Shown here in pieces: positions 23,451 to 39,784 of a stretch of DNA of 64,000 nucleotides. The DNA lies in assembly GCA_007693595.1 (NCBI GenBank), contig REDI01000010.1, forward strand, positions 62,001 to 126,000, written 5' to 3'. This DNA is from Deltaproteobacteria bacterium. GTDB taxonomy: Bacteria > Myxococcota_A > UBA796 > GCA-2862545. The position numbers were made by a program, and so were the translations under genes. Under the pieces are notes generated by a model. It was not told where the DNA came from, did not search any database, and was given only the letters and a program-made list of their open reading frames with translations. Position 1 is the first letter of the stretch. Every line of letters begins with the position of its first letter.

Positions 23451-25040
23451 TCAGGCCGGCGAGGGGGCTTCGGCGCTGACCCGCTCGATGCCCTTCTTGG
23501 CTAGCGCATAGTCAGGGTCGATCTCGAGGGCCTTTTCATAGGCGTGCAGGGCCGAGTTTCGATCTCCGTGCATCTCCAGGCAGACCCCGTAGTTGAACCA
23601 GCCGGCGCGACGGTGTGGCTGCTCGCGAGTGACGCGCTCGAAGAGGGCGTTCGCCTCTGCGATTCGGCGCATGCGAAAGAGGAGCCTCGCCGAGAGGAAG
23701 ACGACGTCGTCGGTGGGGCCGATCGGGAAAGAACGCTTGACCACCTCTTCGATACAGTTGACTAGATCTTGCCGCTGGTCCGCCTCGGCCTCTTCGATCT
23801 GCTTGGCGAAGAGCTCGCCGAAGCGCGCGAACAAGACCGGATCGAAGCAGGACAGTCGCATCAGGTTGAGCAACATCGGCAGCTCGGGCTCGATCTTGAG
23901 TGCGCGGAACTGCTGATAGAAGCGATGGTACTCGCAAGGGCCGAAGGTGTCGATGTGGTCGGTGTAGCTCTGCTTCCAGCGGCGCAAGGCCGCCGGCTCC
24001 CCGCCGGTCAGGGCGAAGCTCGCCATGGTGAAGCGGGTATAGGGGGCGCGAGTGGTCAGGAACTCGCCGCCGTGGTTCTCGGCGAGCACGCCGACCGCGT
24101 CCATGTTGGCCATGAAAGAGAAGCTGCCATGCTTGGGCGGTTGTCCGATCCGTCGACGGTCCAGATCGGCCAGGCGCCGGTAGCCCTTGTCGCCGATCAG
24201 GATGCACCCGCGGTGGCCCGAGGTCTCCATGAGCGCGTCGATGGCGCGAAGTCCCCCGACGGGGAGCATGATCTCGGCGGCGCGTAGCCCGCTGAGGTAG
24301 CGGTTGAGGATCCCGTCGAGGAGCGGATCGTTGTAGTGCGGCATGCTCACAGGGTGAGGCATGGACGTCAGCTCGACGTGGGCCGAGGCGTCGTTGGCTT
24401 GGGGATCGACCGTCGGTGGGAGCAGGGTGCGGTAGCGCAACTCCTGCAGCCGCCCATCGCGGATGAGGAAGGCGTCTTGGCGCAGGGTGTCGATGACGTA
24501 GTTGATGATGAGCATGAGCGGGTTGGGCTCAGGCTGCTCGCCGAGGACCTCGCCGCTGTGGATCAGCTTGATGGGGCCGGGCTCGTCGGCGTCGAAGAGG
24601 GCGAAGTCGACCCGGCCGCGCGCGACCAGGTCCGTGAACTCGTCGCGCTTCGAGAAGCCGTCGACGTTGGCCTGGTTGAAGTCGGTGAGGACCACGCGGA
24701 AGGTGGGCAGGCCTAGCCGTGCGCTCAGCTCGTCGAGCTCGCGCGCGAGTAAGAAGCCCAAGCGGCCGCCGCCCGATCCGAGCTCGACCACGTTGATCGG
24801 GCGATCGGGATCGATGCGCCCCAGGGGGTGGTCCTGGCCCAGCGCCAGCGCGTCTTCGAGGAAGCCGACGAGCACCCGCGCGTAGCTCGCGGCCACCTTG
24901 GCGTTGCCCGTGACGTAGTGCGGCACCGTGTGGGTGCTCCAGGCCTTCGGGCCGGCGCTGGCGTAGAAACGCTTCTGAATGTCCCATATGACGGACGCAC
25001 TGAGGGGGACGTAGGGTTCGATGGGCTGATGATCCGACAT
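23451..25040 (-). CDS. SAM-dependent methyltransferase fused to C-terminal TPR
   Basis: 529-residue two-part protein. Residues 80-260 form a Rossmann methyltransferase with motif I VVELGSGGGRLGFLLA (85-100) and a later LIINYVIDTLRQDAF block, resembling the MidA/NDUFAF7 (COG1565) group. Residues 440-525 contain tetratricopeptide repeats, the last reading RNSALHAYEKALEIDPDYALAKKGI. The substrate is not apparent; the group includes protein arginine methyltransferases. ATG at 25040 has GGAGG four bases upstream. It lies 63 bases after the CarH-like gene, in the same direction as the carotenoid genes. Confidence 0.75.
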   Translation of the reverse strand: MSDHQPIEPYVPLSASVIWDIQKRFYASAGPKAWSTHTVPHYVTGNAKVAASYARVLVGFLEDALALGQDHPLGRIDPDRPINVVELGSGGGRLGFLLARELDELSARLGLPTFRVVLTDFNQANVDGFSKRDEFTDLVARGRVDFALFDADEPGPIKLIHSGEVLGEQPEPNPLMLIINYVIDTLRQDAFLIRDGRLQELRYRTLLPPTVDPQANDASAHVELTSMPHPVSMPHYNDPLLDGILNRYLSGLRAAEIMLPVGGLRAIDALMETSGHRGCILIGDKGYRRLADLDRRRIGQPPKHGSFSFMANMDAVGVLAENHGGEFLTTRAPYTRFTMASFALTGGEPAALRRWKQSYTDHIDTFGPCEYHRFYQQFRALKIEPELPMLLNLMRLSCFDPVLFARFGELFAKQIEEAEADQRQDLVNCIEEVVKRSFPIGPTDDVVFLSARLLFRMRRIAEANALFERVTREQPHRRAGWFNYGVCLEMHGDRNSALHAYEKALEIDPDYALAKKGIERVSAEAPSPA

Positions 25041-25103: not shown

Positions 25104-25967
25104 TCAGCGATCGAGACGGAGCAACAGATCTTCGAAGGTCGCACAGTAAAGTAAGCGATCGGTGCTCTCGCCCGTCAGCGGTTCGACCCCCGGCCCGCCG
25201 AGGGCGAGCATTGTGGAGGGTGGCGTCATCGTGAGCAAGCGCTGTGCATGTTCGCGGACCGCGTCGGGCTCGCGGCGATTGATAAGGGACTGGCAGATCA
25301 ACGCCACATCGCGGGTGTGAAGGAGCCCGTCGAGATCTTCGAGGGGAAGATCGGCGCCGAGGTAGACGATCCTCCACCCGCGCAGCGCGAGCTTGACCGC
25401 GACCGCCAACAAGGGGATCTCGTGTTGCTCTCCGGGAAAGCCGGCACACAGCGCGACGGGCCCCCCGGCCGGTCCGCTCTCGAGGCGGTGGAGTACCGTG
25501 ATGAGCTGCTCGCGGACGAAGGCGCTGGTGAAGTGCTCTTGGGCGATGCTCACGGAGCCGGCGTGCCAGCGGTCTCCGACGTCGCGTAGGACCGGCAGCA
25601 GCACGTCGTCGATCATGCGGCGGATCGGGTAGGTGCTGATCAGATGGAAGGCGCGATCGGCCTCGACCCGGTCAAAGGCGAGCAGCGCTCCCCTCAAGGC
25701 ATCCCGGAGATGGTCGAGGGGCTGCTCGCCGTCGGCGCGAGCGGGCTCGCCGGTCTTTCGGAGCAGCTCCACCGCTTCGCCGATCCGGTGTCCCTTCTCG
25801 AGAAGCTGGGTGAGGCGGTGGAGGATCTGCACGTCTTCGTCATCGTAGACGCGGTGTCCCCCGTCGGTGCGGTTGGGTTTGGGGACACCATAGCGACGCT
25901 CCCAAGCGAGGAGCGTATTCCGGGGGATCCCGGTCATGTCGACGACGGTTCGGATGCGGTAGGCCAT
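25104..25967 (-). CDS. carH: MerR-family, cobalamin-binding light-responsive repressor (CarH/CarA-like)
   Basis: 287-residue regulator. Residues 3-70 are a MerR-type winged helix (YRIRTVVDMTGIPRNTLLAWERRYG). Residues 85-165 form the helical cap with the Wx9EH motif (W134, E144, H145) that contacts adenosylcobalamin in CarH. Residues 168-285 form the B12-binding Rossmann part with E180-Q-H182, where His182 matches the lower axial ligand. The usual Gly three positions after that His (ExHxxG) is Pro185 here. In Thermus and Myxococcus such proteins repress carotenoid genes in the dark and release DNA in light. It starts four bases after crtB, within the operon it probably controls. Confidence 0.88.
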   Translation of the reverse strand: MAYRIRTVVDMTGIPRNTLLAWERRYGVPKPNRTDGGHRVYDDEDVQILHRLTQLLEKGHRIGEAVELLRKTGEPARADGEQPLDHLRDALRGALLAFDRVEADRAFHLISTYPIRRMIDDVLLPVLRDVGDRWHAGSVSIAQEHFTSAFVREQLITVLHRLESGPAGGPVALCAGFPGEQHEIPLLAVAVKLALRGWRIVYLGADLPLEDLDGLLHTRDVALICQSLINRREPDAVREHAQRLLTMTPPSTMLALGGPGVEPLTGESTDRLLYCATFEDLLLRLDR

Positions 25968-25971
25968 GGCC

Positions 25972-26919
25972 TCAGGCTCCGCAGCCGGGAAGATCCCGGA
26001 GTTCGAGGTGGAGCTCGGAACGGTGGTGGGGGAGGGGAGCGAGCAGATAGCGCGCCAGGTCGAGCAGCCCGAGCAGGCTCAAGACCACCTTGGCGGGGGT
26101 CGAGGTGAAGGCGCGGTGTTGCCACGGGTCGCAGTCCCGCTGCCGTAGGGCGGTGCCGATGCCCCGGTAGACGCGGCTGGCGACGTGGATCGCGAGCCTT
26201 GCGCGGAGCGGGATGTAGCGCATCCCCTGGTTGGCGCTGGCGTAGTAGGTGTCGGCGAGCGCGAGGAGATCCCGCACGACCCGGCTCAGCGCCTCGCGCT
26301 CGGCGTGGTTTAAGGAGGGGCCGGGGCCCGCCGCCTGTAGCAGGCGCTCGGAGCTCAGCCCGACGTCCTCCAGCCGCCTCGCGGGAAGGTAGACGCGACC
26401 TCGGACGGCGTCTTCGTGGACGTCTCGACAGATGTTGGTGATCTGCATCGCCACCCCGAGATCGACGGCGAAGGGGCTCGCGGCGGGGTCGTAGACCCCG
26501 AGCACGGCGCACATCATCAGGCCCACGGTCCCCGCGACCCGATAGCTGTAGCGGAGCAGCTCGGCGTCATCGGCGAAGCGCACGGTGCCCAGATCGCCTC
26601 GAACCCCGTGGAGGAGCTGGAGCGCGGGCTCGATCCCGATTGGGCCGCGGTCGAGCACGGCGCGGGTGTGGGCGATCAGCGGCCGGGGGGAGGCGCGGTC
26701 CCGGAGCTCCGCGTCGAGCGCGTCGAGCGCCCCGACCGCATCGACCGCGCTGTCCGCCTCGTCCACCAGGTCGTCGACCTGACGGCAGAAGGCGTAGAGC
26801 ACCGCTGCATCGTCGAGCTGGTGACGGGGAAGAAGCGCTCCCGCCCACCGGAACGAGCGGGCGTGGGTAGACAGCACGGCGCGGCTGTCTTGGAGCAAGG
26901 CGGGGGGATTGGAGTTCAT
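25972..26919 (-). CDS. crtB: Phytoene synthase
   Basis: 315-residue squalene/phytoene synthase family enzyme that condenses two geranylgeranyl diphosphates to phytoene. Aspartate-rich motif 1 is in YAFCRQVDDLVDE and motif 2 in QITNICRDVHEDAVRGRVYLP. HARSFRWAGALLP near the N-terminus is also typical. The start overlaps the crtI stop as ATGA. Phytoene rather than squalene synthesis is supported by the crtE and crtI neighbours. Confidence 0.93.
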   Translation of the reverse strand: MNSNPPALLQDSRAVLSTHARSFRWAGALLPRHQLDDAAVLYAFCRQVDDLVDEADSAVDAVGALDALDAELRDRASPRPLIAHTRAVLDRGPIGIEPALQLLHGVRGDLGTVRFADDAELLRYSYRVAGTVGLMMCAVLGVYDPAASPFAVDLGVAMQITNICRDVHEDAVRGRVYLPARRLEDVGLSSERLLQAAGPGPSLNHAEREALSRVVRDLLALADTYYASANQGMRYIPLRARLAIHVASRVYRGIGTALRQRDCDPWQHRAFTSTPAKVVLSLLGLLDLARYLLAPLPHHRSELHLELRDLPGCGA

Positions 26920-28440: not shown

Positions 28441-29526
28441 TCAGATCTCCGAGCGGGTGTGCGCGAAGTCGCGCGGGGCAGTGTGAGCGATCGGGGCGAT
28501 GGCCTTGGCGACCAGGGTCATGGCCACGGCGTGCAGGCGAGGCTCGGCGAGCAGGAGGGGGTCGTCGTCGATGGCTTGCTCCAGCCGCGCCATGCGCTGC
28601 CAGACGGCGTCGAGGGCGCCGTCGCGGCGGAAGCGCTGGATGGCCTTCGCTACCTGAGCGGGGGAGGTGTCGGTGCGGGGCGCGGCGAGCAGGGCGATGA
28701 GCCAGTCGCGATCCTCGGGGTGCAGGCGCAGGTGCTCGCTCACCAGGGCGCTCACCTTGCCTTCGTACAGGTCCGACCCGACGACATCTCGCCCTTTGTC
28801 GCCATAGAGGTCGAGCACGTCGTCTTGGATCTGGAAGAGCACGCCGATCCGGTGGAAGGGAGCTGCGAGCTGGGCCGCTGCGTCGGCGGTCCGACCGGCG
28901 ATGAGGGCCGCCCCCTCGACGGGCAGGCCGAAGAGGGCCGCGGTCTTGCCCTGGGTGGCGGAGGCGTAGCTGGTCCAGTCGAGCTTGCCGAGTTGCAGCA
29001 TGTCGAACTCATTGGCCTGGCCTCGGGCGACTCGCTCCGCGTTGACCGCCAGGGTGCGGCTGAGGTGCCACTTGACCGCGTCGGGGACCGGGAGCGCGTC
29101 GAGGACCCGGTAGGGGAGCATGAGCATGAGGTCGCCCGCGTTGATCGCCTGGGCCAGTCCGTGCCGGACCCAGGTGGCGGTGGAGCCGCGGCGCACCCGG
29201 TCGCCGTCCTGGACGTCGTCGTGGAGCAGGGTGGCGTTGTGCAAGAGCTCACAAGAGGCCGCCCAAGCGGTCGCGTTCTCGCGCTGACCGTCCAGGGCCT
29301 CGACCGCGCCGAGCGCGAGTCGAGCTCGCAGCCGCTTGCCGCCGCTGGCGAGGTGCTCGCTGGTCATGGCGCTGAGTCGGTCGAAGGCGCTGCCAGAGCA
29401 GACCTCGAGCATCAGAGTCTCGACGTCAGCGAGGCCCTCCTCGCTCCAGATGCCGCGCGGTCGTCGCGTGCTGACCGCGGCACGCGCGATGGGCTGGGGT
29501 TGGGCGTAGCCGGAGACCTTGTTCAC
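28441..29526 (-). CDS. crtE: Geranylgeranyl diphosphate synthase (polyprenyl synthase family)
   Basis: 361-residue isoprenyl diphosphate synthase that supplies C20 precursor. The first aspartate-rich motif is LLHDDVQDGDRVRRG (D103, D104, D107) and the second QIQDDVLDLYGD (D235, D236, D239). GGKRLRARL binds isopentenyl diphosphate. The short DDxxD spacing and size fit GGPP synthases of carotenoid clusters. GTG at 29526 overlaps the lycopene cyclase stop (GTGA). Chain length C20 is inferred from context. Confidence 0.92.
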   Translation of the reverse strand: MNKVSGYAQPQPIARAAVSTRRPRGIWSEEGLADVETLMLEVCSGSAFDRLSAMTSEHLASGGKRLRARLALGAVEALDGQRENATAWAASCELLHNATLLHDDVQDGDRVRRGSTATWVRHGLAQAINAGDLMLMLPYRVLDALPVPDAVKWHLSRTLAVNAERVARGQANEFDMLQLGKLDWTSYASATQGKTAALFGLPVEGAALIAGRTADAAAQLAAPFHRIGVLFQIQDDVLDLYGDKGRDVVGSDLYEGKVSALVSEHLRLHPEDRDWLIALLAAPRTDTSPAQVAKAIQRFRRDGALDAVWQRMARLEQAIDDDPLLLAEPRLHAVAMTLVAKAIAPIAHTAPRDFAHTRSEI

Positions 29527-30752
29527 GAGGCACCTCTGAGCTGTGGGTTAAGGACGCGGAGCAGGGATGAACGCCCGCGGCCCAGGGCGAGCGCGACGAT
29601 GGCTCGCCGCAGGGGTGGGTCGAGGCGCGCGAAGACCTGGGTCATCGCGCGGGCGACCTGACCGGGGGTCGAGGTGGCGCTCAGGTAGGCGCGCCACGAC
29701 GGCTCGGGCAAGTCGAAGAAGCACTGGAAGAACGACGCGGTCTGGCCGTCGTCGAGGGAGAGCAAGAGCTCGAGGCCCAGGTCGTGCAGGGCGCGGGTGC
29801 GCCGGAGAGGGGCGGGCCAGATCTGAGCCCACGCCGCTTGAACGGCGGCGAGAGGGCCCTGGTCGAGGTGCTCGTCGAGGGCTGCGGCGACGGGAGCCGC
29901 CAGGTGCAGGGCTCGAGTGAGCTGGTAGCCGGTCGCGGGGTGGACCAGGCCGGCGGCCGCGCCGAAGGGCAAGAGCCGGTCGACGGTGGGGATCGGGGTG
30001 TTCATGGGGATGATGCACCGTTCGACCTCGAGTTCGCGCGAGGCGTGGATCCCGAGATGGGCGAGCCGCTTGTAGAGTCGGCTCCGAAGCAGCTCGAGGG
30101 GGACGGCGGGTCGAGCCGCCAGGGAAGTCTCCTCGAGGAAGACGAGGTTCGAGGCAAGTGGCAGGGCGTAGAGGAAGCTGGGTACTCCGTCGCGCTCGGT
30201 AGGGCTCAGGTGGTCTGAGGAGAAGTCCATCAGCCGCATCTCGCCTTCGGCCCATGGGTGGTGGTCGACTTCGGCGAGGATGCCGTAGGCGGCTTGAAAG
30301 GCGGTCGGAGCGGCAGCCCCAGGATCGAGGCTGCGGCCGATGGCGTTGACCACCACGGCTCCGCGGCGACTCGGACCTCGGTGGAGGTGTACCTCGCTGT
30401 AGCTCGGGTGATGCGCGACGTGGGCGGCCCGGCCCGTGACGAGCTCGCCTCCATGGTCGGCGAGGCGCCCCAAGAGCTGGTCGCGCAGCGCGTGCTTGTC
30501 GATGCGTGCGTAGGTGCCCCCGAGCGGCCGGGGACCGGCGCCGAGGTCGGCGGTGGGTAGGGTCCAGGTCGCGCTCAAGGGGACGTGGTCGGGCAGGTCG
30601 TGCGCCCACGCGCCATAGGTAGGCGCCCAGGTGCGATCGGGGCTCGGATCGACGACCTGTACGGTCATACCTCGCTCGGCGGCAGCAGCCGCGAGGGCGA
30701 GGCCGGCAGGGCCGGCTCCGAGGATGATCAGCGTGGGGAGAGACTGGGACAC
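29523..30752 (-). CDS. crtL: Lycopene cyclase, CrtL/CrtY flavoprotein type
   Basis: 409-residue flavoprotein cyclase that forms beta-ionone rings on lycopene. The N-terminus has the dinucleotide fold LIILGAGPAGLALAAAAAERG, then TYGAWAHDLPDHVPL. The region FLYALPLASNLVFLEETSLAARP carries the conserved FLEET segment, and IPTVDRLLPFGAAAGLVHPATGY the late substrate-binding motif. GTG at 30752 is chosen because GAGG lies upstream and the frame before it runs into the regulatory repeats. It is first in the leftward operon, with a predicted 5' leader of only about 20 bases. Confidence 0.88.
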   Translation of the reverse strand: MSQSLPTLIILGAGPAGLALAAAAAERGMTVQVVDPSPDRTWAPTYGAWAHDLPDHVPLSATWTLPTADLGAGPRPLGGTYARIDKHALRDQLLGRLADHGGELVTGRAAHVAHHPSYSEVHLHRGPSRRGAVVVNAIGRSLDPGAAAPTAFQAAYGILAEVDHHPWAEGEMRLMDFSSDHLSPTERDGVPSFLYALPLASNLVFLEETSLAARPAVPLELLRSRLYKRLAHLGIHASRELEVERCIIPMNTPIPTVDRLLPFGAAAGLVHPATGYQLTRALHLAAPVAAALDEHLDQGPLAAVQAAWAQIWPAPLRRTRALHDLGLELLLSLDDGQTASFFQCFFDLPEPSWRAYLSATSTPGQVARAMTQVFARLDPPLRRAIVALALGRGRSSLLRVLNPQLRGAS

Positions 30753-30758
30753 GGAACC

Positions 30759-30786
30759 TCGACAAAACTTCTGCACATGGTATACA
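30759..30786 (+). promoter_or_regulatory. Predicted promoter of the rightward crtC operon
   Basis: TCGACA at 30759-30764 (five of six to TTGACA), a 16-base spacer, then TATACA at 30781-30786. The -10 hexamer coincides with one of the 11-bp repeats of the CarH-type operator, so repressor binding should block this promoter. Predicted from sequence only. Confidence 0.45.
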
Positions 30787-30808
30787 TCGTGTGTACACGT
30801 TATGCAAA
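30770..30808. promoter_or_regulatory. CarH-type operator: 11-bp direct repeats of TnTACA
   Basis: Reading the plus strand, TATACA at 30781 and TGTACA at 30792 match TnTACA exactly and start 11 bases apart. Weaker copies in the same register are TCTGCA at 30770 and TGCAAA at 30803. Thermus CarH binds tandem 11-bp repeats of the form nTnTACAn overlapping its promoter, and a CarH-like gene lies in the leftward operon. The array covers the predicted -35/-10 elements of both divergent carotenoid operons. Confidence 0.72.
30779..30807 (-). promoter_or_regulatory. Predicted promoter of the leftward crtL-crtE-crtI-crtB-carH operon
   Basis: On the minus strand TTGCAT (plus 30802-30807) is followed after 17 bases by TATACC (plus 30779-30784). 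Spacing is ideal for the housekeeping sigma factor and the -10 matches four of six positions. A start near 30772 would leave a leader of about 20 bases containing the GAGG ribosome site before the GTG at 30752. The operator repeats lie between and across both hexamers. Confidence 0.55.
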
Positions 30809-30849
30809 CGCTAGTCGAAGAAACTCTTCGCGGTGCCCCGGAGCTGCCC

Positions 30850-31929
30850 ATGATGTCGATCACGGACCCGAACTCCGACTTTTCAGAAGATCTGTTGGAC
30901 GCGCACGGGGGCTTTCTGTGGTGGTATGTGGATCTCGTCGACGACGACGGCAACGGGTGCGTGTTGATCTGGTCGTTCGGCTTACCTTTCTTGCCTGGTC
31001 GAGAGTCGGCGGCGGTGTCGGGTCGGGGGCGCACTCCCAGGGAGCGGCCCAGCTTGAATATTGCGATCTACAGGAACTTTCGTCCTGAGCTCTATGTGCT
31101 GCAAGAGGTGGACCCCGCGGACGCGCGTTGGGATCGGGTGGCGGGTCGGGTGCACATCGGCGCCAGTTCGATGCAAACCATCTTATCCCAGGGGCAGCGG
31201 CAGCTCTCTATGCGGGTCGACTGTACCATGCCCGGTGGACAATCTTTGACAGGCGCCGTGGATCTCAGCGGTCCGGGCTGCCGCTTGACTCGATCGCTGG
31301 GCGAAGATCCGAACCACGCTTGGTCGCCCCTATGCACCGCCGCCGAGGGGCGGGCACAGTTCTTCGTTGAGGGTCGACCCTTCTTGTCGGTGAAGGGGAG
31401 GGCCTACCACGACCGCAACGGCTCCACTCGGCCCCTCCGAGGGCTCGGCATCCGGCACTGGATCTGGGGCCGCAGCCCCATGGGTGACGAAGAGCGGATC
31501 TGGTACCTGCTCTGGCCTCACCGGGGGCCGGCCGAGGCTTGGGGCTTCGAGGTCGCCTCCGATGGGGAGCTCCGGCCGGTCGAGCATCTTGAGGTCGAGC
31601 GCTCCGGGCCCAGGCTGGGGATCTTCGGTATGCCGTGGCATCGGCGCATCACCCTGACGCAGGCGGGCCGCTGCTGGCTCCGGGTGGAGCACGCCCACAC
31701 CGTCGACCTCGGCTTCTTCTATGGCCGGTGGATCGCCCGGACCGTAGGGCCCGACGGGCAGCGAGGCACGGGCATCGCCGAGGCGGTGCGGCCAGGGCGG
31801 GTCGATCGGGCCTGGAACCGCTGGCTGGTGCGGATGGCGGTCCACCGAGCTCACGCGCCCAACTCGCCCTTCTTGCCCCTCTTCGCCGGGGTACGTCGGG
31901 GTGCGGCGTCTCTTGAGGTGAGCCCATGA
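30850..31929 (+). CDS. crtC: Carotenoid 1,2-hydratase-like protein (CrtC family)
   Basis: 359 residues resembling CrtC hydratases, which add water to the terminal double bond of acyclic carotenoid ends. The N-terminal GGFLWWYVDLVDDDGNGCVLIWSFGLPFLPG matches the Trp/Tyr-rich start of the family's lipocalin-like fold; later segments such as IRHWIWGRSPMGDEERIWYLLWP and RRITLTQAGRCWLRVEHAHTVDLGFFYGRW are also Trp-rich. ATG at 30850 has GGAG six bases upstream; an ATG at 30802 lies inside the operator and lacks a ribosome site. First gene of the rightward operon; ATGA overlap with the glycosyltransferase. Confidence 0.78.
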   Translation: MMSITDPNSDFSEDLLDAHGGFLWWYVDLVDDDGNGCVLIWSFGLPFLPGRESAAVSGRGRTPRERPSLNIAIYRNFRPELYVLQEVDPADARWDRVAGRVHIGASSMQTILSQGQRQLSMRVDCTMPGGQSLTGAVDLSGPGCRLTRSLGEDPNHAWSPLCTAAEGRAQFFVEGRPFLSVKGRAYHDRNGSTRPLRGLGIRHWIWGRSPMGDEERIWYLLWPHRGPAEAWGFEVASDGELRPVEHLEVERSGPRLGIFGMPWHRRITLTQAGRCWLRVEHAHTVDLGFFYGRWIARTVGPDGQRGTGIAEAVRPGRVDRAWNRWLVRMAVHRAHAPNSPFLPLFAGVRRGAASLEVSP

Positions 31930-33062
31930 TGCCCTGGCTCTGGCTTCTGGTCTTGCCCGTCGCTCTCGCCACTGCGATGAGCCTGTTCAACCTTCTCGCG
32001 TGGCCGCGCGCCCGCCGCTCCATGGTGTATCGGGGCGCGGTGAGCGTGCTCGTGCCCGCCCGCAACGAAGAGGCGAGCATCGGGCCGGTGGTCGACGCGA
32101 TCCTGGCCCAGAACCACCCGATCCTCGAGGTCGTGGTCTTCGATGATGGTAGCACGGACGCGACTCCTGAGCGGCTCGCGAGCCGCTCGTCGGATCCGCG
32201 CCTTCGGGTCGTAGAGGGCGACGGCTTGCCCGCGGGCTGGGTCGGCAAGCCCCACGCCTGTCATCAGCTCGCGGCTCGCGCGCGAGGCGATCTTCTGCTC
32301 TTCGTCGACGCCGACGTGGTGCTCGATCCTCACGCCGTCGGTCGTATCGCGGCCCTGCTCTCGCGCTACGGCGCCGACGTGCTCACCGCCGTCCCAGCGC
32401 AGGAGACGGGCAGCTTCGTCGAGCGCTTGGTCTTGCCCCTGCTGCACCTGACCTACACCGCTTGGCTGCCACTCCCGCTCGTACACCTCACCCACGATCC
32501 AAGATTTCTTGCGGCAAACGGTCAGATCCTCGCCGTCCGTCGAGACGCCTACGACGCGATCGGTGGCTTCGAGGCGGTGCGCACCGAAGTCGTCGATGAC
32601 ATGGCCTTCTGCCGCCGCGCCAAGCGGGCGCGTCGGCGAGTCGTCTTCGCCGATGGCTCAACCCTCGCCCGCTGTCGGATGTACGGCTCCGCTGCGGAGG
32701 TCTGGAAGGGGTTCTCGAAGAACCTCTACGAGGGCCTCGGCGAGAGCCCCGCGCTGCTGCTCGGGGTCCTCTCGCTCTATAGCCTCGCTTTTATCGTGCC
32801 CTTCTTGGCGCTCCCCCTGACCCTCTTCGTCCCGGAGCTGGCCGCGCCGGCCGTGGTCGCGGTGGGCCTGAACGTGCTGCTCCGCGTGATGCTGGCGGTG
32901 CGCTTTGGGCACTCTTGGCAGGGGGTGCTGCTGCATCCTGTCGCGGTGGCGATCTTGCTCGCCATCGCGCTGAACTCCTACGTGTGGGCTCGGCGTGGCA
33001 GCATCGAGTGGGCGGGTCGAACCTATGCGCCGCGGGCGGAGCGCGGGGTGCCCCATGGCTGA
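31926..33062 (+). CDS. Family 2 glycosyltransferase, probable carotenoid glycosyltransferase
   Basis: 378-residue membrane-anchored GT2 enzyme. An N-terminal helix precedes the GT-A domain: SVLVPARNEEASIGPVV, VVVFDDGSTDATPERLA, then the DxD-type LLFVDADVVLDP, and a later EVVDDMAFCRRAKRARRR acid/base region. Three hydrophobic segments close the C-terminus. This arrangement resembles CrtQ-type carotenoid glycosyltransferases. Position between crtC and crtD suggests it glycosylates the hydroxyl introduced by CrtC; that is inference. Start overlaps crtC (ATGA), and its end overlaps crtD by 8 bases. Confidence 0.78.
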   Translation: MMPWLWLLVLPVALATAMSLFNLLAWPRARRSMVYRGAVSVLVPARNEEASIGPVVDAILAQNHPILEVVVFDDGSTDATPERLASRSSDPRLRVVEGDGLPAGWVGKPHACHQLAARARGDLLLFVDADVVLDPHAVGRIAALLSRYGADVLTAVPAQETGSFVERLVLPLLHLTYTAWLPLPLVHLTHDPRFLAANGQILAVRRDAYDAIGGFEAVRTEVVDDMAFCRRAKRARRRVVFADGSTLARCRMYGSAAEVWKGFSKNLYEGLGESPALLLGVLSLYSLAFIVPFLALPLTLFVPELAAPAVVAVGLNVLLRVMLAVRFGHSWQGVLLHPVAVAILLAIALNSYVWARRGSIEWAGRTYAPRAERGVPHG

Positions 33063-34533
33063 GGTCCTGATCGTCGGCGGAGGGCTCGGTGGGCTGGCGG
33101 CAGCGGTGGTGCTCGCAGCGCGCGGGGTCTCGGTCGAGGTGTTCGAGGCCGCGCCGGTGGTCGGGGGCAAGGCTGGCGAGCAGGTGGTCGACGGCGTCGC
33201 GTTTGACACGGGCCCCAGCGTGCTCACCCTGCCCGAGATCCTTCGCGAGCTGCTCGCCGAGGCCGACGTCACGCTCGAGGAGGTGCTCACCTTGCGGCGT
33301 CCCGATCCGGCCTTTCGCTACACCTGGCCCGACGGCACCGAGCTTGACGTGCATCAAGCGACCGAAGCGACCGAAGCGAGCGTGCGCGCGGCCCTCGGCC
33401 CCCGTGCGGCGGGAGAGTTTTCAGCCTTCATGCGCTACAGCAAGAAGATCTGGGACGCCGCGGCCCCCCACTTCGTGCTCGCCGAGGCGCCCAGCCTTCC
33501 AGGGATCGCCTCCCTCGGTCTGGCTGGGCTGCGCGCCGCCTCGAAGATCGATCCTTTCCGCACCATGCGCCAGGCGATCCAGGCCCAGATCGATGATCCC
33601 CATCTCCGCGACATCTTTCTTCGCTTCGCGACCTACAATGGTTCCGATCCTGCGCGCGCCCCCGCCACCCTGAACTGCATCGCCCACGTCGAGATGGGGC
33701 TGGGATCGTTTGGGGTTGAAGGGGGGATGAAGCGGTTGCCCGAGGTGCTCGCTACGGTGGCAGAGCAGCGGGGCGCGCGCATCCACACCTCCGCGCTGGT
33801 CAGCGCGCTCCTGGTCGATGGCGAAGGCGTGGCCGGGGTCGAGATCGGTGGCTCGGAGCGACGGCAGGCCCGGCACGTGATCGTCAACGCCGACGTGGCC
33901 CACCTCGTCCGGGCCTTGCTCCCCGACGATGCCAAGCACGGCCTGACCGTCGGCCGCGCCCTGAGCACCTCGGGCTGGACGGCGGTGTTGCGCGTGCCTC
34001 GACGAGAACGACCGGCTCATCAAGCCCACTTTCCCGAGCGCTACGCCGCTGAGTTCACCGATCTCTTCGACCGGGAGCGCGCGCCGGAAGATCCCACCGT
34101 CTACCTATGCTGTCAAGAGGCGGCTCACGGCCGCTCCGGCTGGGAAGATCAGAGCCCGGTCTTCGTCATGGCCAACGCGCCCGCCGAGCCCGAGGCGGGG
34201 CCGCGCGATGTAGCGCAGTGGCGTGCGCTCCGCGCTCGGGTGATCGAGCGACTGGTCGGGGCGGGGCTCGTCCCCGCCGAGCCCGAGATCGTCTGGGAGC
34301 GGACCCCGGCCGGCCTGGCCGAGGCGTTCCCAGGCAGCCAGGGGGCGCTGTACGGCGCGGCATCCAACTCGATGTTCTCGGCCTTTCAGCGACCATCCAA
34401 CGCAGTCTCTCGCCTGCCAGGGCTCTACCTGGCCTCCGGGAGCGCCCACCCAGGCGGGGGCGTACCTTTGTGTCTTCAGTCAGGGCGTCTGGCTGCGGGC
34501 GCCTGTCTTCGCGCACTAAGGAAGGATGTATGA
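33055..34533 (+). CDS. crtD: CrtD-like carotenoid 3,4-desaturase (CrtI family paralogue)
   Basis: 492-residue FAD-dependent desaturase. The dinucleotide fold is LIVGGGLGGLAAAVVLAARGVSVEVFE, followed by KAGEQVVDGVAFDTGPSVLTLP. The C-terminal GLYLASGSAHPGGGVPLCLQSGRLAA matches the CrtI/CrtD signature, with GGGVP instead of the GAGMP seen in the crtI of this window. Proximity to crtC suggests 3,4-desaturation of 1-hydroxylated carotenoids. ATG at 33055 is taken because it directly precedes the FAD motif. The stop overlaps the next gene (ATGA). Confidence 0.8.
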   Translation: MAEVLIVGGGLGGLAAAVVLAARGVSVEVFEAAPVVGGKAGEQVVDGVAFDTGPSVLTLPEILRELLAEADVTLEEVLTLRRPDPAFRYTWPDGTELDVHQATEATEASVRAALGPRAAGEFSAFMRYSKKIWDAAAPHFVLAEAPSLPGIASLGLAGLRAASKIDPFRTMRQAIQAQIDDPHLRDIFLRFATYNGSDPARAPATLNCIAHVEMGLGSFGVEGGMKRLPEVLATVAEQRGARIHTSALVSALLVDGEGVAGVEIGGSERRQARHVIVNADVAHLVRALLPDDAKHGLTVGRALSTSGWTAVLRVPRRERPAHQAHFPERYAAEFTDLFDRERAPEDPTVYLCCQEAAHGRSGWEDQSPVFVMANAPAEPEAGPRDVAQWRALRARVIERLVGAGLVPAEPEIVWERTPAGLAEAFPGSQGALYGAASNSMFSAFQRPSNAVSRLPGLYLASGSAHPGGGVPLCLQSGRLAAGACLRALRKDV

Positions 34534-37767: not shown

Positions 37768-39231
37768 TCACCTCCCCCACCGCTCCAGCCAGTCCGAGAG
37801 CCTCAGCTTGCGGCGGGTAGACTGGCTCGTCATGTAGCGGATCTTTCCGTAGATCGGTCGCTCCGGTCCCCAGGCGCGGTCGAATCGGCCCATCACCCAG
37901 CCGATCCCGGCGTAGGAGTTAGGGTCCCGGCCATCGAGGGCGTAGCGATTGTTCAGCTCCACCAGGACCTCGAAGCAGCGCTCCGGGCTGTCGGTCCACG
38001 CGAGCACGCGCTTGCCCCAGAGCATGCGCAGATAGTTGTGCATCACGCCGCTGTGGACGAGCTCTCGCTGGGCGGCGTTCCACAGGGCATCGCCCGTCTC
38101 GGCGCGGGCGAGCGTCTCGAGGTCGTACAGCGCCTCGCGGGGATCGTCTCGGTGCTCGTCGAGGGTCGCGCGGGCCCAGGCGGGTAGGCCGCGGTAGTGC
38201 TCAAAGTTCCTTCCTTCAAGAAAGGCAGCCTGGTGCGCTAGCTCTCGCCAGGTGATCACCTCTTCGAGGAAGGCCTCGGCTCCCTCGTTCAGTCCCCAGG
38301 CCCCCGCTTGTTTCGCGAAGCGATCGGGATCCATCTGGTCGGGATGCCAGCCCTCGTGTTCGAGGATGGCGTGGACCACTCGAGCTCCGCCGATGTGGCC
38401 GAAGTGGAGCCAGGGTGAGAGCCCACTGGAGGCCGCTTCGTCGGGGTGGTTGCGGTCGACGTAGCTCCCCAGCCGCCGCAGGAAGCCCTGGAGCCGTTCC
38501 TCGGCCTCGGAGGGGCCCCCGGGACGATCCGGGACGGGGGCGATGCGGTGATCGATGGGGAGCGCGTCGAGGCCCGCTGGGGCGAGCAGGGCCTGGAGAT
38601 CAGCGGGGGGCCAGCGGTCGAGGATGGGGTCGGGGACGTCGGCCGGCGCTTGGGGGGCGAGGGCCAAGGGCTGGGCGTGGGGTGCGCTGGGGGGGGCGCT
38701 CGCGAAGGTCTTGTGCACAAAGCGGCGGAAGTCGACCGCGCGCTTGTAGCCCTTATCCGCCAACCGTAGCGGGAGAACCCCACAGCCGTCGACCGCCTCG
38801 ATTCGGGTCTGGAGGCGGGCGGTGGCTCGGGCGAGCAGGGCGGGCCAGCGATAGCCAGGGTGCTCGTCGGCGACCACCAGGCAGGCGTGCTCGGCCAGGG
38901 CGGCGAGCAGGCCTCGACCCGCCCGCTCGGTGGGCTCGACATAAGGCAGGTAGGTGACTCCCGCCTCGCGGAAGGTCCGTTGGTTGTCGGCCATCCCCTG
39001 TAGGACGAAGGCATGGAAGCGGTCGCAGGCCCAGCGGTAGGAACAGTCGAGCGGCTCGAAGACCAGGAGTGGACGCTCGAGCTCGCGGGCCCGCGCGACC
39101 GCGTGCTGGAGGGCGTGGTTCCAGGTGGGGCGCCGCTGAGCGGTCATCCAGTAGAGCACGTAGCGCCCGCCGGCTCTTACCGCGCGGTCGGAGGGCACGG
39201 TGAGGCGTAGGGGATCGAGGTCAAGGTTCAC
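37768..39231 (-). CDS. phr: Class II CPD photolyase
   Basis: 487-residue flavoprotein that repairs cyclobutane pyrimidine dimers using blue light. The N-terminal Rossmann part has YVLYWMTAQRRPTWNHALQHA, diagnostic of class II. The FAD-binding C-terminal half contains WGLNEGAEAFLEEVITWRELAHQ, HSGVMHNYLRMLWGKRVL and NRYALDGRDPNSYAGIGWVMGRFDRAWGPE, with MTSQSTRRK at the end. GTG at 39231 has GGAG seven bases upstream and overlaps the preceding gene by 11 bases. It fits the light-stress theme set by the carotenoid cluster, but I see no CarH repeats upstream of its operon. Confidence 0.92.
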   Translation of the reverse strand: MNLDLDPLRLTVPSDRAVRAGGRYVLYWMTAQRRPTWNHALQHAVARARELERPLLVFEPLDCSYRWACDRFHAFVLQGMADNQRTFREAGVTYLPYVEPTERAGRGLLAALAEHACLVVADEHPGYRWPALLARATARLQTRIEAVDGCGVLPLRLADKGYKRAVDFRRFVHKTFASAPPSAPHAQPLALAPQAPADVPDPILDRWPPADLQALLAPAGLDALPIDHRIAPVPDRPGGPSEAEERLQGFLRRLGSYVDRNHPDEAASSGLSPWLHFGHIGGARVVHAILEHEGWHPDQMDPDRFAKQAGAWGLNEGAEAFLEEVITWRELAHQAAFLEGRNFEHYRGLPAWARATLDEHRDDPREALYDLETLARAETGDALWNAAQRELVHSGVMHNYLRMLWGKRVLAWTDSPERCFEVLVELNNRYALDGRDPNSYAGIGWVMGRFDRAWGPERPIYGKIRYMTSQSTRRKLRLSDWLERWGR

Positions 39232-39784
39232 GCTTGTCTCCGGGCAGGGGGAGCCCCAGGTGCACGCTGCCCTGGGCGTAGAGCGCGCCCGCACCGCCAT
39301 CTCCCGACCAGACCCAGCCTGCGCCACCTTGGGCGCTGAGGTGTACGCGTCCGATCCGGCCGCCGAGGAAGGGCTCGACCACGACCGGCCAGCGGGACTG
39401 GGAGCGCTGGAGGTCGACCGCCACGGGAAGCGCGAGCTGGACCCCGCCGTCGATCGCGCCGCGGCGCTCCAGGCGGGCCCAGGGGCTCACCGACAGGCCG
39501 AACGGGAGCGCGGGCCCGAACAGCCCCCCGACCGCCAGGCCGTAGCCGACCCGCCACCCCTCGTCGGGCCCGTGGTGGTGAGAGAGGGCTGCGCCGAGCT
39601 CGGCGGTGCCCGCGGGCCACCGGAGTCCTGCACCCAGCGCGACCACCGGCGCGCCTTCGCGGGCGGGGAGGCGCACTGCGGCGCCCACGGTCGGAGCCCC
39701 CAGGCTCACCACCAGATCCCCGTCCACCGGGGCGCGAAGCGCGACGGGATCGGCGATCGAGAGCTGCGCGAAGAGGAGGATCAT
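39221..39784 (-). CDS. Predicted secreted beta-rich (outer-membrane-like) protein
   Basis: 187 residues, family not recognised. It begins MILLFAQLSIA, a short possible signal peptide, and then alternates short hydrophobic strands rich in Gly, Val and Leu with charged turns (VVSLGAPTVGAAVRLP, YGLAVGGLFGPALPFGLSVSPWARLE). This resembles a small outer-membrane barrel. ATG at 39784 overlaps the upstream hydrolase stop (ATGA), and its end overlaps the photolyase start. Confidence 0.6.
   Translation of the reverse strand: MILLFAQLSIADPVALRAPVDGDLVVSLGAPTVGAAVRLPAREGAPVVALGAGLRWPAGTAELGAALSHHHGPDEGWRVGYGLAVGGLFGPALPFGLSVSPWARLERRGAIDGGVQLALPVAVDLQRSQSRWPVVVEPFLGGRIGRVHLSAQGGAGWVWSGDGGAGALYAQGSVHLGLPLPGDKREP

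What the first reader, a model, noticed from the sequence alone, without database searches (positions are those of the whole stretch)
30759..30808. CarH-type light/B12 operator shared by two divergent carotenoid operons
The gap between the lycopene cyclase and crtC-like genes has two exact TnTACA copies starting 11 bases apart (30781, 30792), plus weaker copies in register at 30770 and 30803. Tandem 11-bp nTnTACAn repeats are the known binding site of Thermus CarH. Candidate -35/-10 elements for both directions (minus: TTGCAT-17-TATACC; plus: TCGACA-16-TATACA) fall inside the array, so one repressor could silence both operons in the dark. The matching regulator is encoded at 25104-25967 in the leftward operon.
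Basis: partly seen in the sequence, partly recalled or inferred. Interest (0 to 1): 0.8.

Follow-up and report, generated by a model that had tools for sequence, protein, structure and literature searches.

The report
Light-repressor site between carotenoid operons
The short gap between two back-to-back carotenoid gene sets carries five regularly spaced copies of the DNA word recognised by CarH, a vitamin-B12 light sensor encoded in the same cluster, so one switch probably keeps pigment genes off in the dark; this is a new example of a known arrangement.

Summary
Against the published CarH repeat (nnnnTnnACAn, 11 bp), the gap holds five in-register repeats: 30759 TCGACA, 30770 TCTGCA, 30781 TATACA, 30792 TGTACA, 30803 TGCAAA. 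That is DR1-dr2-DR3-DR4-dr5, the same order as at the Myxococcus xanthus crt promoter. It is the best such array in the window, and the rest of the 4.9-Mb genome holds no four-repeat match with two or fewer mismatches. A congeneric genome keeps the repeats in exact register together with both candidate promoters. Gaps upstream of the crtC-like gene across the order are enriched for 11-bp TnnACA arrays (Fisher p about 1e-10, near relatives, window and congener left out). The gene at 25104-25967 has the CarH fold, Wx9EH motif and B12 ligand His. So the CarH reading holds. CarH operators serving divergent promoters are already described in Sorangium cellulosum, so this is a new member of a known kind. 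Corrections: the crtC-like start is probably ATG 30850, and each promoter is weak alone. Unexpected: all 29 examined regulators of this type in the order have Leu/Ile/Val at recognition-helix Arg24. An unlinked paralogue keeping Arg24 is a rival binder.

The parts
30759..30764 (+). DR1, TCGACA (11-bp unit 30755-30765); also the candidate plus-strand -35
   Evidence: Full match to TnnACA, in register; identical and in register in the congener L087. It abuts the crtY ribosome-binding site, so part of its conservation may have that cause.
30770..30775 (+). dr2, TCTGCA (unit 30766-30776), one mismatch to TnnACA
   Evidence: TGTGCA in the congener
30781..30786 (+). DR3, TATACA (unit 30777-30787); also the candidate plus-strand -10
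   Evidence: Full match; identical in the congener
30792..30797 (+). DR4, TGTACA (unit 30788-30798)
   Evidence: Full match; TATACG in the congener
30803..30808 (+). dr5, TGCAAA (unit 30799-30809), one mismatch; overlaps the candidate minus-strand -35
   Evidence: identical in the congener; TGCAA recurs across the order
30802..30807 (-). candidate -35 TTGCAT of the leftward crtY operon
   Evidence: TTGCAG-17-TATACC in the congener and TTGCAA-17-TATAAG/C in L088, L089 and L100; not above shuffles in the window alone
30779..30784 (-). candidate -10 TATACC of the leftward operon
   Evidence: 17-nt spacing, conserved in the congener; inferred start near 30772
30757..30760 (-). ribosome-binding site GAGG of crtY, 4 nt before GTG 30752
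   Evidence: sequence; GAGG and GTG also in the congener
30840..30843 (+). ribosome-binding site GGAG of the crtC-like gene, 6 nt before ATG 30850
   Evidence: sequence
29523..30752 (-). lycopene cyclase (crtY/crtL type), first gene of the leftward operon
   Evidence: PF05834 E 5e-75; TIGR01790 above cut-off
28441..29526 (-). polyprenyl (geranylgeranyl) diphosphate synthase, crtE-like; overlaps crtY by 4 bp
   Evidence: PF00348
26916..28439 (-). phytoene desaturase, crtI
   Evidence: TIGR02734 above cut-off
25972..26919 (-). phytoene synthase, crtB
   Evidence: PF00494
25104..25967 (-). CarH-family regulator, last carotenoid-linked gene of the leftward operon (4 bp after crtB)
   Evidence: MerR HTH and B12-binding domains; best solved relatives are Thermus CarH; AlphaFold model pLDDT 92.8, top Foldseek hits all CarH; Wx9EH, EQH
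30850..31929 (+). crtC-like carotenoid 1,2-hydratase, first gene of the rightward operon (probable start ATG 30850 rather than 30802)
   Evidence: NF045922 E 4e-10, below its cut-off; most homologues align from about residue 17 of the longer reading, i.e. 30850
31926..33062 (+). glycosyltransferase, CruG/HpnB-like; overlaps crtC by 4 bp
33055..34533 (+). 1-hydroxycarotenoid 3,4-desaturase-like, crtD
   Evidence: NF045637 E 2e-116

Best explanation
The gap 30753-30849 holds one CarH operator: five head-to-tail 11-bp repeats (three full, two imperfect) lying over the overlapping, divergent promoters of crtYEIB-carH (leftward) and crtC-GT-crtD (rightward). In the dark, adenosylcobalamin-bound CarH oligomers bind the array and keep RNA polymerase off both promoters. 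Light breaks the Co-C bond, CarH falls apart and releases the DNA, and both operons are expressed together. Because carH is in the leftward operon, it represses its own synthesis. Shown here: the array, its register, its uniqueness, its conservation, the gene order, the CarH fold and photoreceptor motifs, and a cobalamin adenosyltransferase gene in the genome. Inferred from characterised homologues: binding, oligomeric state, light response and repression of both promoters.
For: Array of 18/20 specified bases, 0 of 20,000 shuffles as good. Unique in 4.9 Mb at two or fewer mismatches over four repeats. Exact DR1-dr2-DR3-DR4-dr5 order of M. xanthus Pcrt (PMC9304148). The congener, whose crtC protein is 59% identical, keeps the five repeats in register and both promoters, and aligns best inside the repeats. 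Across the order, 25 other crtC-upstream gaps carry 11-bp TnnACA arrays beyond shuffles (Fisher 2e-15; 1e-10 for 18 loci with near relatives removed), and period 11 scores highest of 8-14. Divergent sigma70-like promoters across the order: p 3e-8 and 4e-10. CarH fold, Wx9EH and His ligand. PduO-type adenosyltransferase and cobalamin riboswitches in the genome. The same arrangement is footprinted in Sorangium cellulosum.
Against: No binding, transcription or light data. The recognition helix lacks Arg24 (LxWERRY instead of RxWERRY), so its contacts must differ from Thermus CarH. A second CarH-like protein that keeps Arg24 is encoded elsewhere. Promoters are not above chance in the window alone. 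The protein scores 160.8 against the NCBIfam CarH cut-off of 400. The order-wide p-values treat related genomes as independent.
Confidence: 0.82

Rival explanations
1. The array is a B12 light-regulator operator, but the main binder is the unlinked paralogue at G000:C24:105983-106774, alone or with the linked CarH.
For: The paralogue keeps the canonical LRTWERRY helix, Wx9EH and the His ligand; the linked CarH has Leu at position 24.
Against: carH is linked to the crt genes through most of the order. The paralogue of this genome sits beside an SDR and an FAD oxidoreductase gene, and its own upstream region shows a different, weak series (TGAACA/TGAATA/TGCGTA).
Confidence: 0.08
2. CarH binds here mainly as dimers on inverted repeats, as first proposed for M. 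xanthus CarA, and the 11-bp direct repeats are secondary.
For: GTATAC and GTGTACAC are palindromes and an imperfect palindrome spans 30780-30809. Some members of family f2 have near-perfect dyads such as GTTGCAAACTATATACAC-AAC-GTGTATATATCGCAAC (L113).
Against: In the window and congener the five-repeat direct register is kept exactly, and period 11 scores highest across the order.
Confidence: 0.12
3. CarH represses only one of the two operons from this site; the other has a different promoter or control.
For: Each promoter is weak by consensus in the window alone.
Against: The array lies in the middle of the only gap between the two operons, over candidate promoters for both directions that are conserved in the congener.
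Confidence: 0.12
4. Chance or plain promoter DNA: two overlapping AT-rich promoters in a GC-rich genome happen to look like TnnACA repeats.
For: TATACA serves as both -10 and repeat; an adjacent repeat pair alone is found 14 times in the genome.
Against: 0 of 20,000 dinucleotide shuffles; unique in the genome; conserved in register in the congener, including repeats outside the promoter hexamers.
Confidence: 0.03

Closest known systems
Sorangium cellulosum CarH operators PcrtSc1 and PcrtSc2 (PMC9304148)
   Same: One site of tandem 11-bp TnnACA repeats between divergent carotenoid genes, with overlapping promoters inside; dark, AdoCbl-dependent binding shown there
   Different: Three repeats rather than five; different gene pairs; there shown with a DBD chimera, here only computed
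Myxococcus xanthus Pcrt (PB) operator of CarH/CarA (PMC9304148, PMC8156234)
   Same: Identical DR1-dr2-DR3-DR4-dr5 order over about 55 bp
   Different: Single promoter with TTGACA in DR4; second regulator CarA; CarA recognition helix keeps Arg (2JML)
Haliangium ochraceum PcrtHo (PMC9304148)
   Same: Mixed full and imperfect repeats over -35/-10 of a crt cluster containing carH
   Different: Four repeats (two full, two imperfect)
Thermus thermophilus CarH and its three-repeat operator (5C8D/5C8E)
   Same: Protein fold, Wx9EH with His after Trp, B12 ligand His, 11-bp repeats
   Different: About 33% identity; Arg24 and Arg176 replaced by Leu and Gln; operator controls one promoter

Membership tests
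CarH operator | Tandem 11-bp repeats with TnnACA, full or imperfect, three or more in register | tested here: met
   Five in register, three full; 0 of 20,000 shuffles
CarH operator | Overlaps -35 and/or -10 of a carotenoid promoter | tested here: inconclusive
   Candidates lie in the array and are conserved in the congener, but are not above chance in the window alone
CarH operator | Bound by AdoCbl-CarH in the dark and released in light | not testable with these tools
   needs EMSA and footprinting
CarH photoreceptor | MerR-type DNA-binding domain plus B12-binding domain with CarH fold | tested here: met
   Pfam; Foldseek top hits 5C8D/E/F, cobalamin-domain TM about 0.82
CarH photoreceptor | Wx9EH motif, with His after Trp | tested here: met
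   WHAGSVSIAQEH
CarH photoreceptor | B12-binding motif D/ExHx2G/P-x41-SxT/V-x22-27-GG | tested here: met
   EQHEIP-x41-SLI-x27-GG read from the translation; T/V is replaced by Ile, a conservative departure
CarH photoreceptor | RxWERRY recognition helix | tested here: not met
   LxWERRY; Leu/Ile/Val at this Arg in the window and in 28 of 28 relatives examined
[quoted passage not shown]
   Gln and Asp
CarH photoreceptor | NCBIfam NF052513 equivalog cut-off (400 bits) | tested here: not met
   160.8 bits; none of the 14 control genomes passes either

The most novel reading that the evidence does not exclude
In this order the carotenoid-linked CarH has lost the recognition-helix Arg that Thermus CarH, M. 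xanthus CarA and the paralogues keep, and reads its operator in a changed way: TGCAAA-type half sites beside TATACA, with direct-repeat layouts in some genera and palindromic ones in others. It would be a natural series of CarH specificity and geometry variants on one conserved divergent promoter.
Probability: 0.3. Interest if true: 0.55.

Novelty: new member of a known kind. Interest (0 to 1): 0.33.

Why it matters
It extends B12-based light control of carotenoid genes, by prediction, to a lineage with no experimental data that I could find, and shows the whole switch (sensor, operator, both target operons) kept as a unit in much of an order. The loss of Arg24 in a regulator that still sits beside TnnACA arrays gives a direct test of what that residue does in CarH-DNA recognition.

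Tried and rejected
Strict TnTACA as the motif: too narrow; the published TnnACA explains one more full repeat. ATG 30802 as the crtC start: homologues mostly begin near residue 17 of that reading (ATG 30850), which also has a ribosome-binding site. Strict sigma70 consensus scan: nothing found. The other genomic array (G000:C63:131320, 3 mismatches): beside a CobW-like GTPase gene, not a carotenoid locus, no better than the control pattern. PMC6240859 (B. megaterium CarH) is not held. The organism could not be named with these tools.

Full report
What is there. The gap between the lycopene cyclase gene (minus strand, GTG 30752) and the crtC-like gene reads GGAACCTCGACAAAACTTCTGCACATGGTATACATCGTGTGTACACGTTATGCAAACGC.... 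All are present. The published CarH repeat, from Thermus, Bacillus and myxobacterial operators, is 5'-nnnnTnnACAn-3', repeated every 11 bp, with imperfect copies called dr (PMC9304148). Under that definition TCGACA at 30759 is a further full repeat in the same register. The array is DR1 (30759), dr2 (30770), DR3 (30781), DR4 (30792), dr5 (30803), 18 of 20 specified bases. The paper reports the same DR1-dr2-DR3-DR4-dr5 order for M. xanthus Pcrt and its close relatives.

Is it chance? The array is the best in the 64-kb window on both strands for 2, 3, 4 and 5 repeats. None of 20,000 dinucleotide shuffles of the 97-bp gap reached it. In the 4.9-Mb genome the four-repeat pattern with at most three mismatches is found only here (one mismatch, plus overlapping registers and strand) and once elsewhere with three mismatches; the mirrored control gives two. 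The three-repeat pattern DR1-N16-DR3-DR4 is found once in the genome.

Conservation. The congener (locus L087) has, upstream of its crtC, TCGACA, TGTGCA, TATACA, TATACG, TGCAAA and TGAACA, every 11 bp, in the same place. It also keeps TTGCAG-17-TATACC on the minus strand and TCGACA-16-TATACA on the plus strand (read). The pairwise alignment is best inside these blocks. Its crtC protein is 59% identical, so this is not recent identity. In the order, carH-crtB-crtI-crtE(-crtY) and crtC-GT-crtD are usually divergent. The regions upstream of crtC, 28 in all, score above their own shuffles for four-repeat TnnACA arrays (Fisher 2e-17). The best period is 11 among 8-14, with 9 second. Leaving out the window and the congener gives 2e-15 for 25 loci and 1e-10 for 18 loci with near relatives removed. 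These p-values assume independence that relatives do not fully have, and several single loci are not significant. Sigma70-like promoters facing both ways are likewise enriched across the order (3e-8, 4e-10), although in the window each is unremarkable alone (p 0.086 and 0.449).

Gene starts. Most crtC homologues align from about residue 17 of the frame opened at ATG 30802, that is from ATG 30850, which has GGAG 6 nt upstream. The array is therefore most likely all outside coding sequence. The crtY start GTG 30752, with GAGG, is shared with the congener. DR1 touches that ribosome-binding site, so its conservation has two possible causes.

The regulator. 25104-25967 has MerR and B12-binding domains. 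Its best solved relatives are Thermus CarH. The AlphaFold model (pLDDT 92.8) matches CarH structures first, with TM about 0.82 over the cobalamin domain; the lower whole-chain value (about 0.6) probably reflects domain placement. It has WHAGSVSIAQEH (Wx9EH with His after Trp) and the EQH ligand motif. By the criterion used in PMC9304148, an intact Wx9EH together with the B12 motif marks a CarH rather than a CarA. The genome has a cobalamin adenosyltransferase and two cobalamin riboswitches, so AdoCbl is probably available.

Departures. The recognition helix reads LLAWERRYG. The Arg of RxWERRY (Thermus Arg24) is Leu, Ile or Val in the window and in all 28 relatives of this type with a readable domain. 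It is Arg in Thermus CarH, in M. xanthus CarA (2JML), in the actinobacterial proteins found, and in the unlinked paralogues of the same order. The paralogue in this genome (G000:C24:105983-106774) keeps Wx9EH and sits beside an SDR and an FAD oxidoreductase gene (these two named by eye from the translations). It is the main rival binder, but it is not linked to crt genes. Arg176 of the Thermus dimer interface is Gln here.

How it probably works. Shown: operator-like array, register, rarity, conservation, gene order, CarH fold and motifs. Inferred from homologues: AdoCbl-CarH oligomers cover the array in the dark and block both promoters; light releases them; both halves of the carotenoid pathway and carH itself switch on together.

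Known or new. A single CarH site serving two divergent carotenoid promoters was mapped in Sorangium cellulosum, with overlapping promoters noted by the authors. Five-repeat operators are known in Cystobacterineae. This is a new member of a known kind in a lineage I could not name. The recognition-helix change and the palindromic versions in family f2 (L113, L114) are the less expected part and deserve a bench test.

Noticed in passing
window 25104-25967 and loci L057-L084: Recognition-helix Arg24 of CarH replaced by Leu/Ile/Val in this type of CarH throughout the order, while paralogues and other phyla keep Arg.
   Followed up: partly
L085:7897-8829 (G000:C24): Second CarH/LitR-like gene with Arg24 and Wx9EH, beside an SDR and an FAD-dependent oxidoreductase gene; upstream weak series TGAACA/TGAATA/TGCGTA every 11 bp.
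   Followed up: partly
L113, L114: Near-perfect inverted repeat upstream of crtC (GTTGCAAACTATATACAC-AAC-GTGTATATATCGCAAC in L113), suggesting a palindromic operator geometry in some genera.
   Followed up: no
L043:1501-1539 (G019:C53:15884-15922): Four perfect TnnACA repeats in a row between a lipoprotein-like gene and an lgt-like gene (named by eye), not at carotenoid genes.
   Followed up: no
L002-L010, upstream of carH: Actinobacterial carH genes have classic tandem three-repeat arrays just upstream, often two arrays about 50-60 bp apart.
   Followed up: no
window 37768-39327 (-): Class II (phr2-type) DNA photolyase near the crt cluster; a phr2 gene is also close to crtD in the congener L136.
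   Followed up: no
G000:C63:131320 (L141): Weak four-repeat array (3 mismatches) between a CobW-like GTPase gene and a divergent gene with a signal-peptide-like start (named by eye).
   Followed up: no
window 23451-25040 (-): Downstream of carH, a protein with a methyltransferase-like N-terminal part (by eye) and C-terminal TPR repeats.
   Followed up: no
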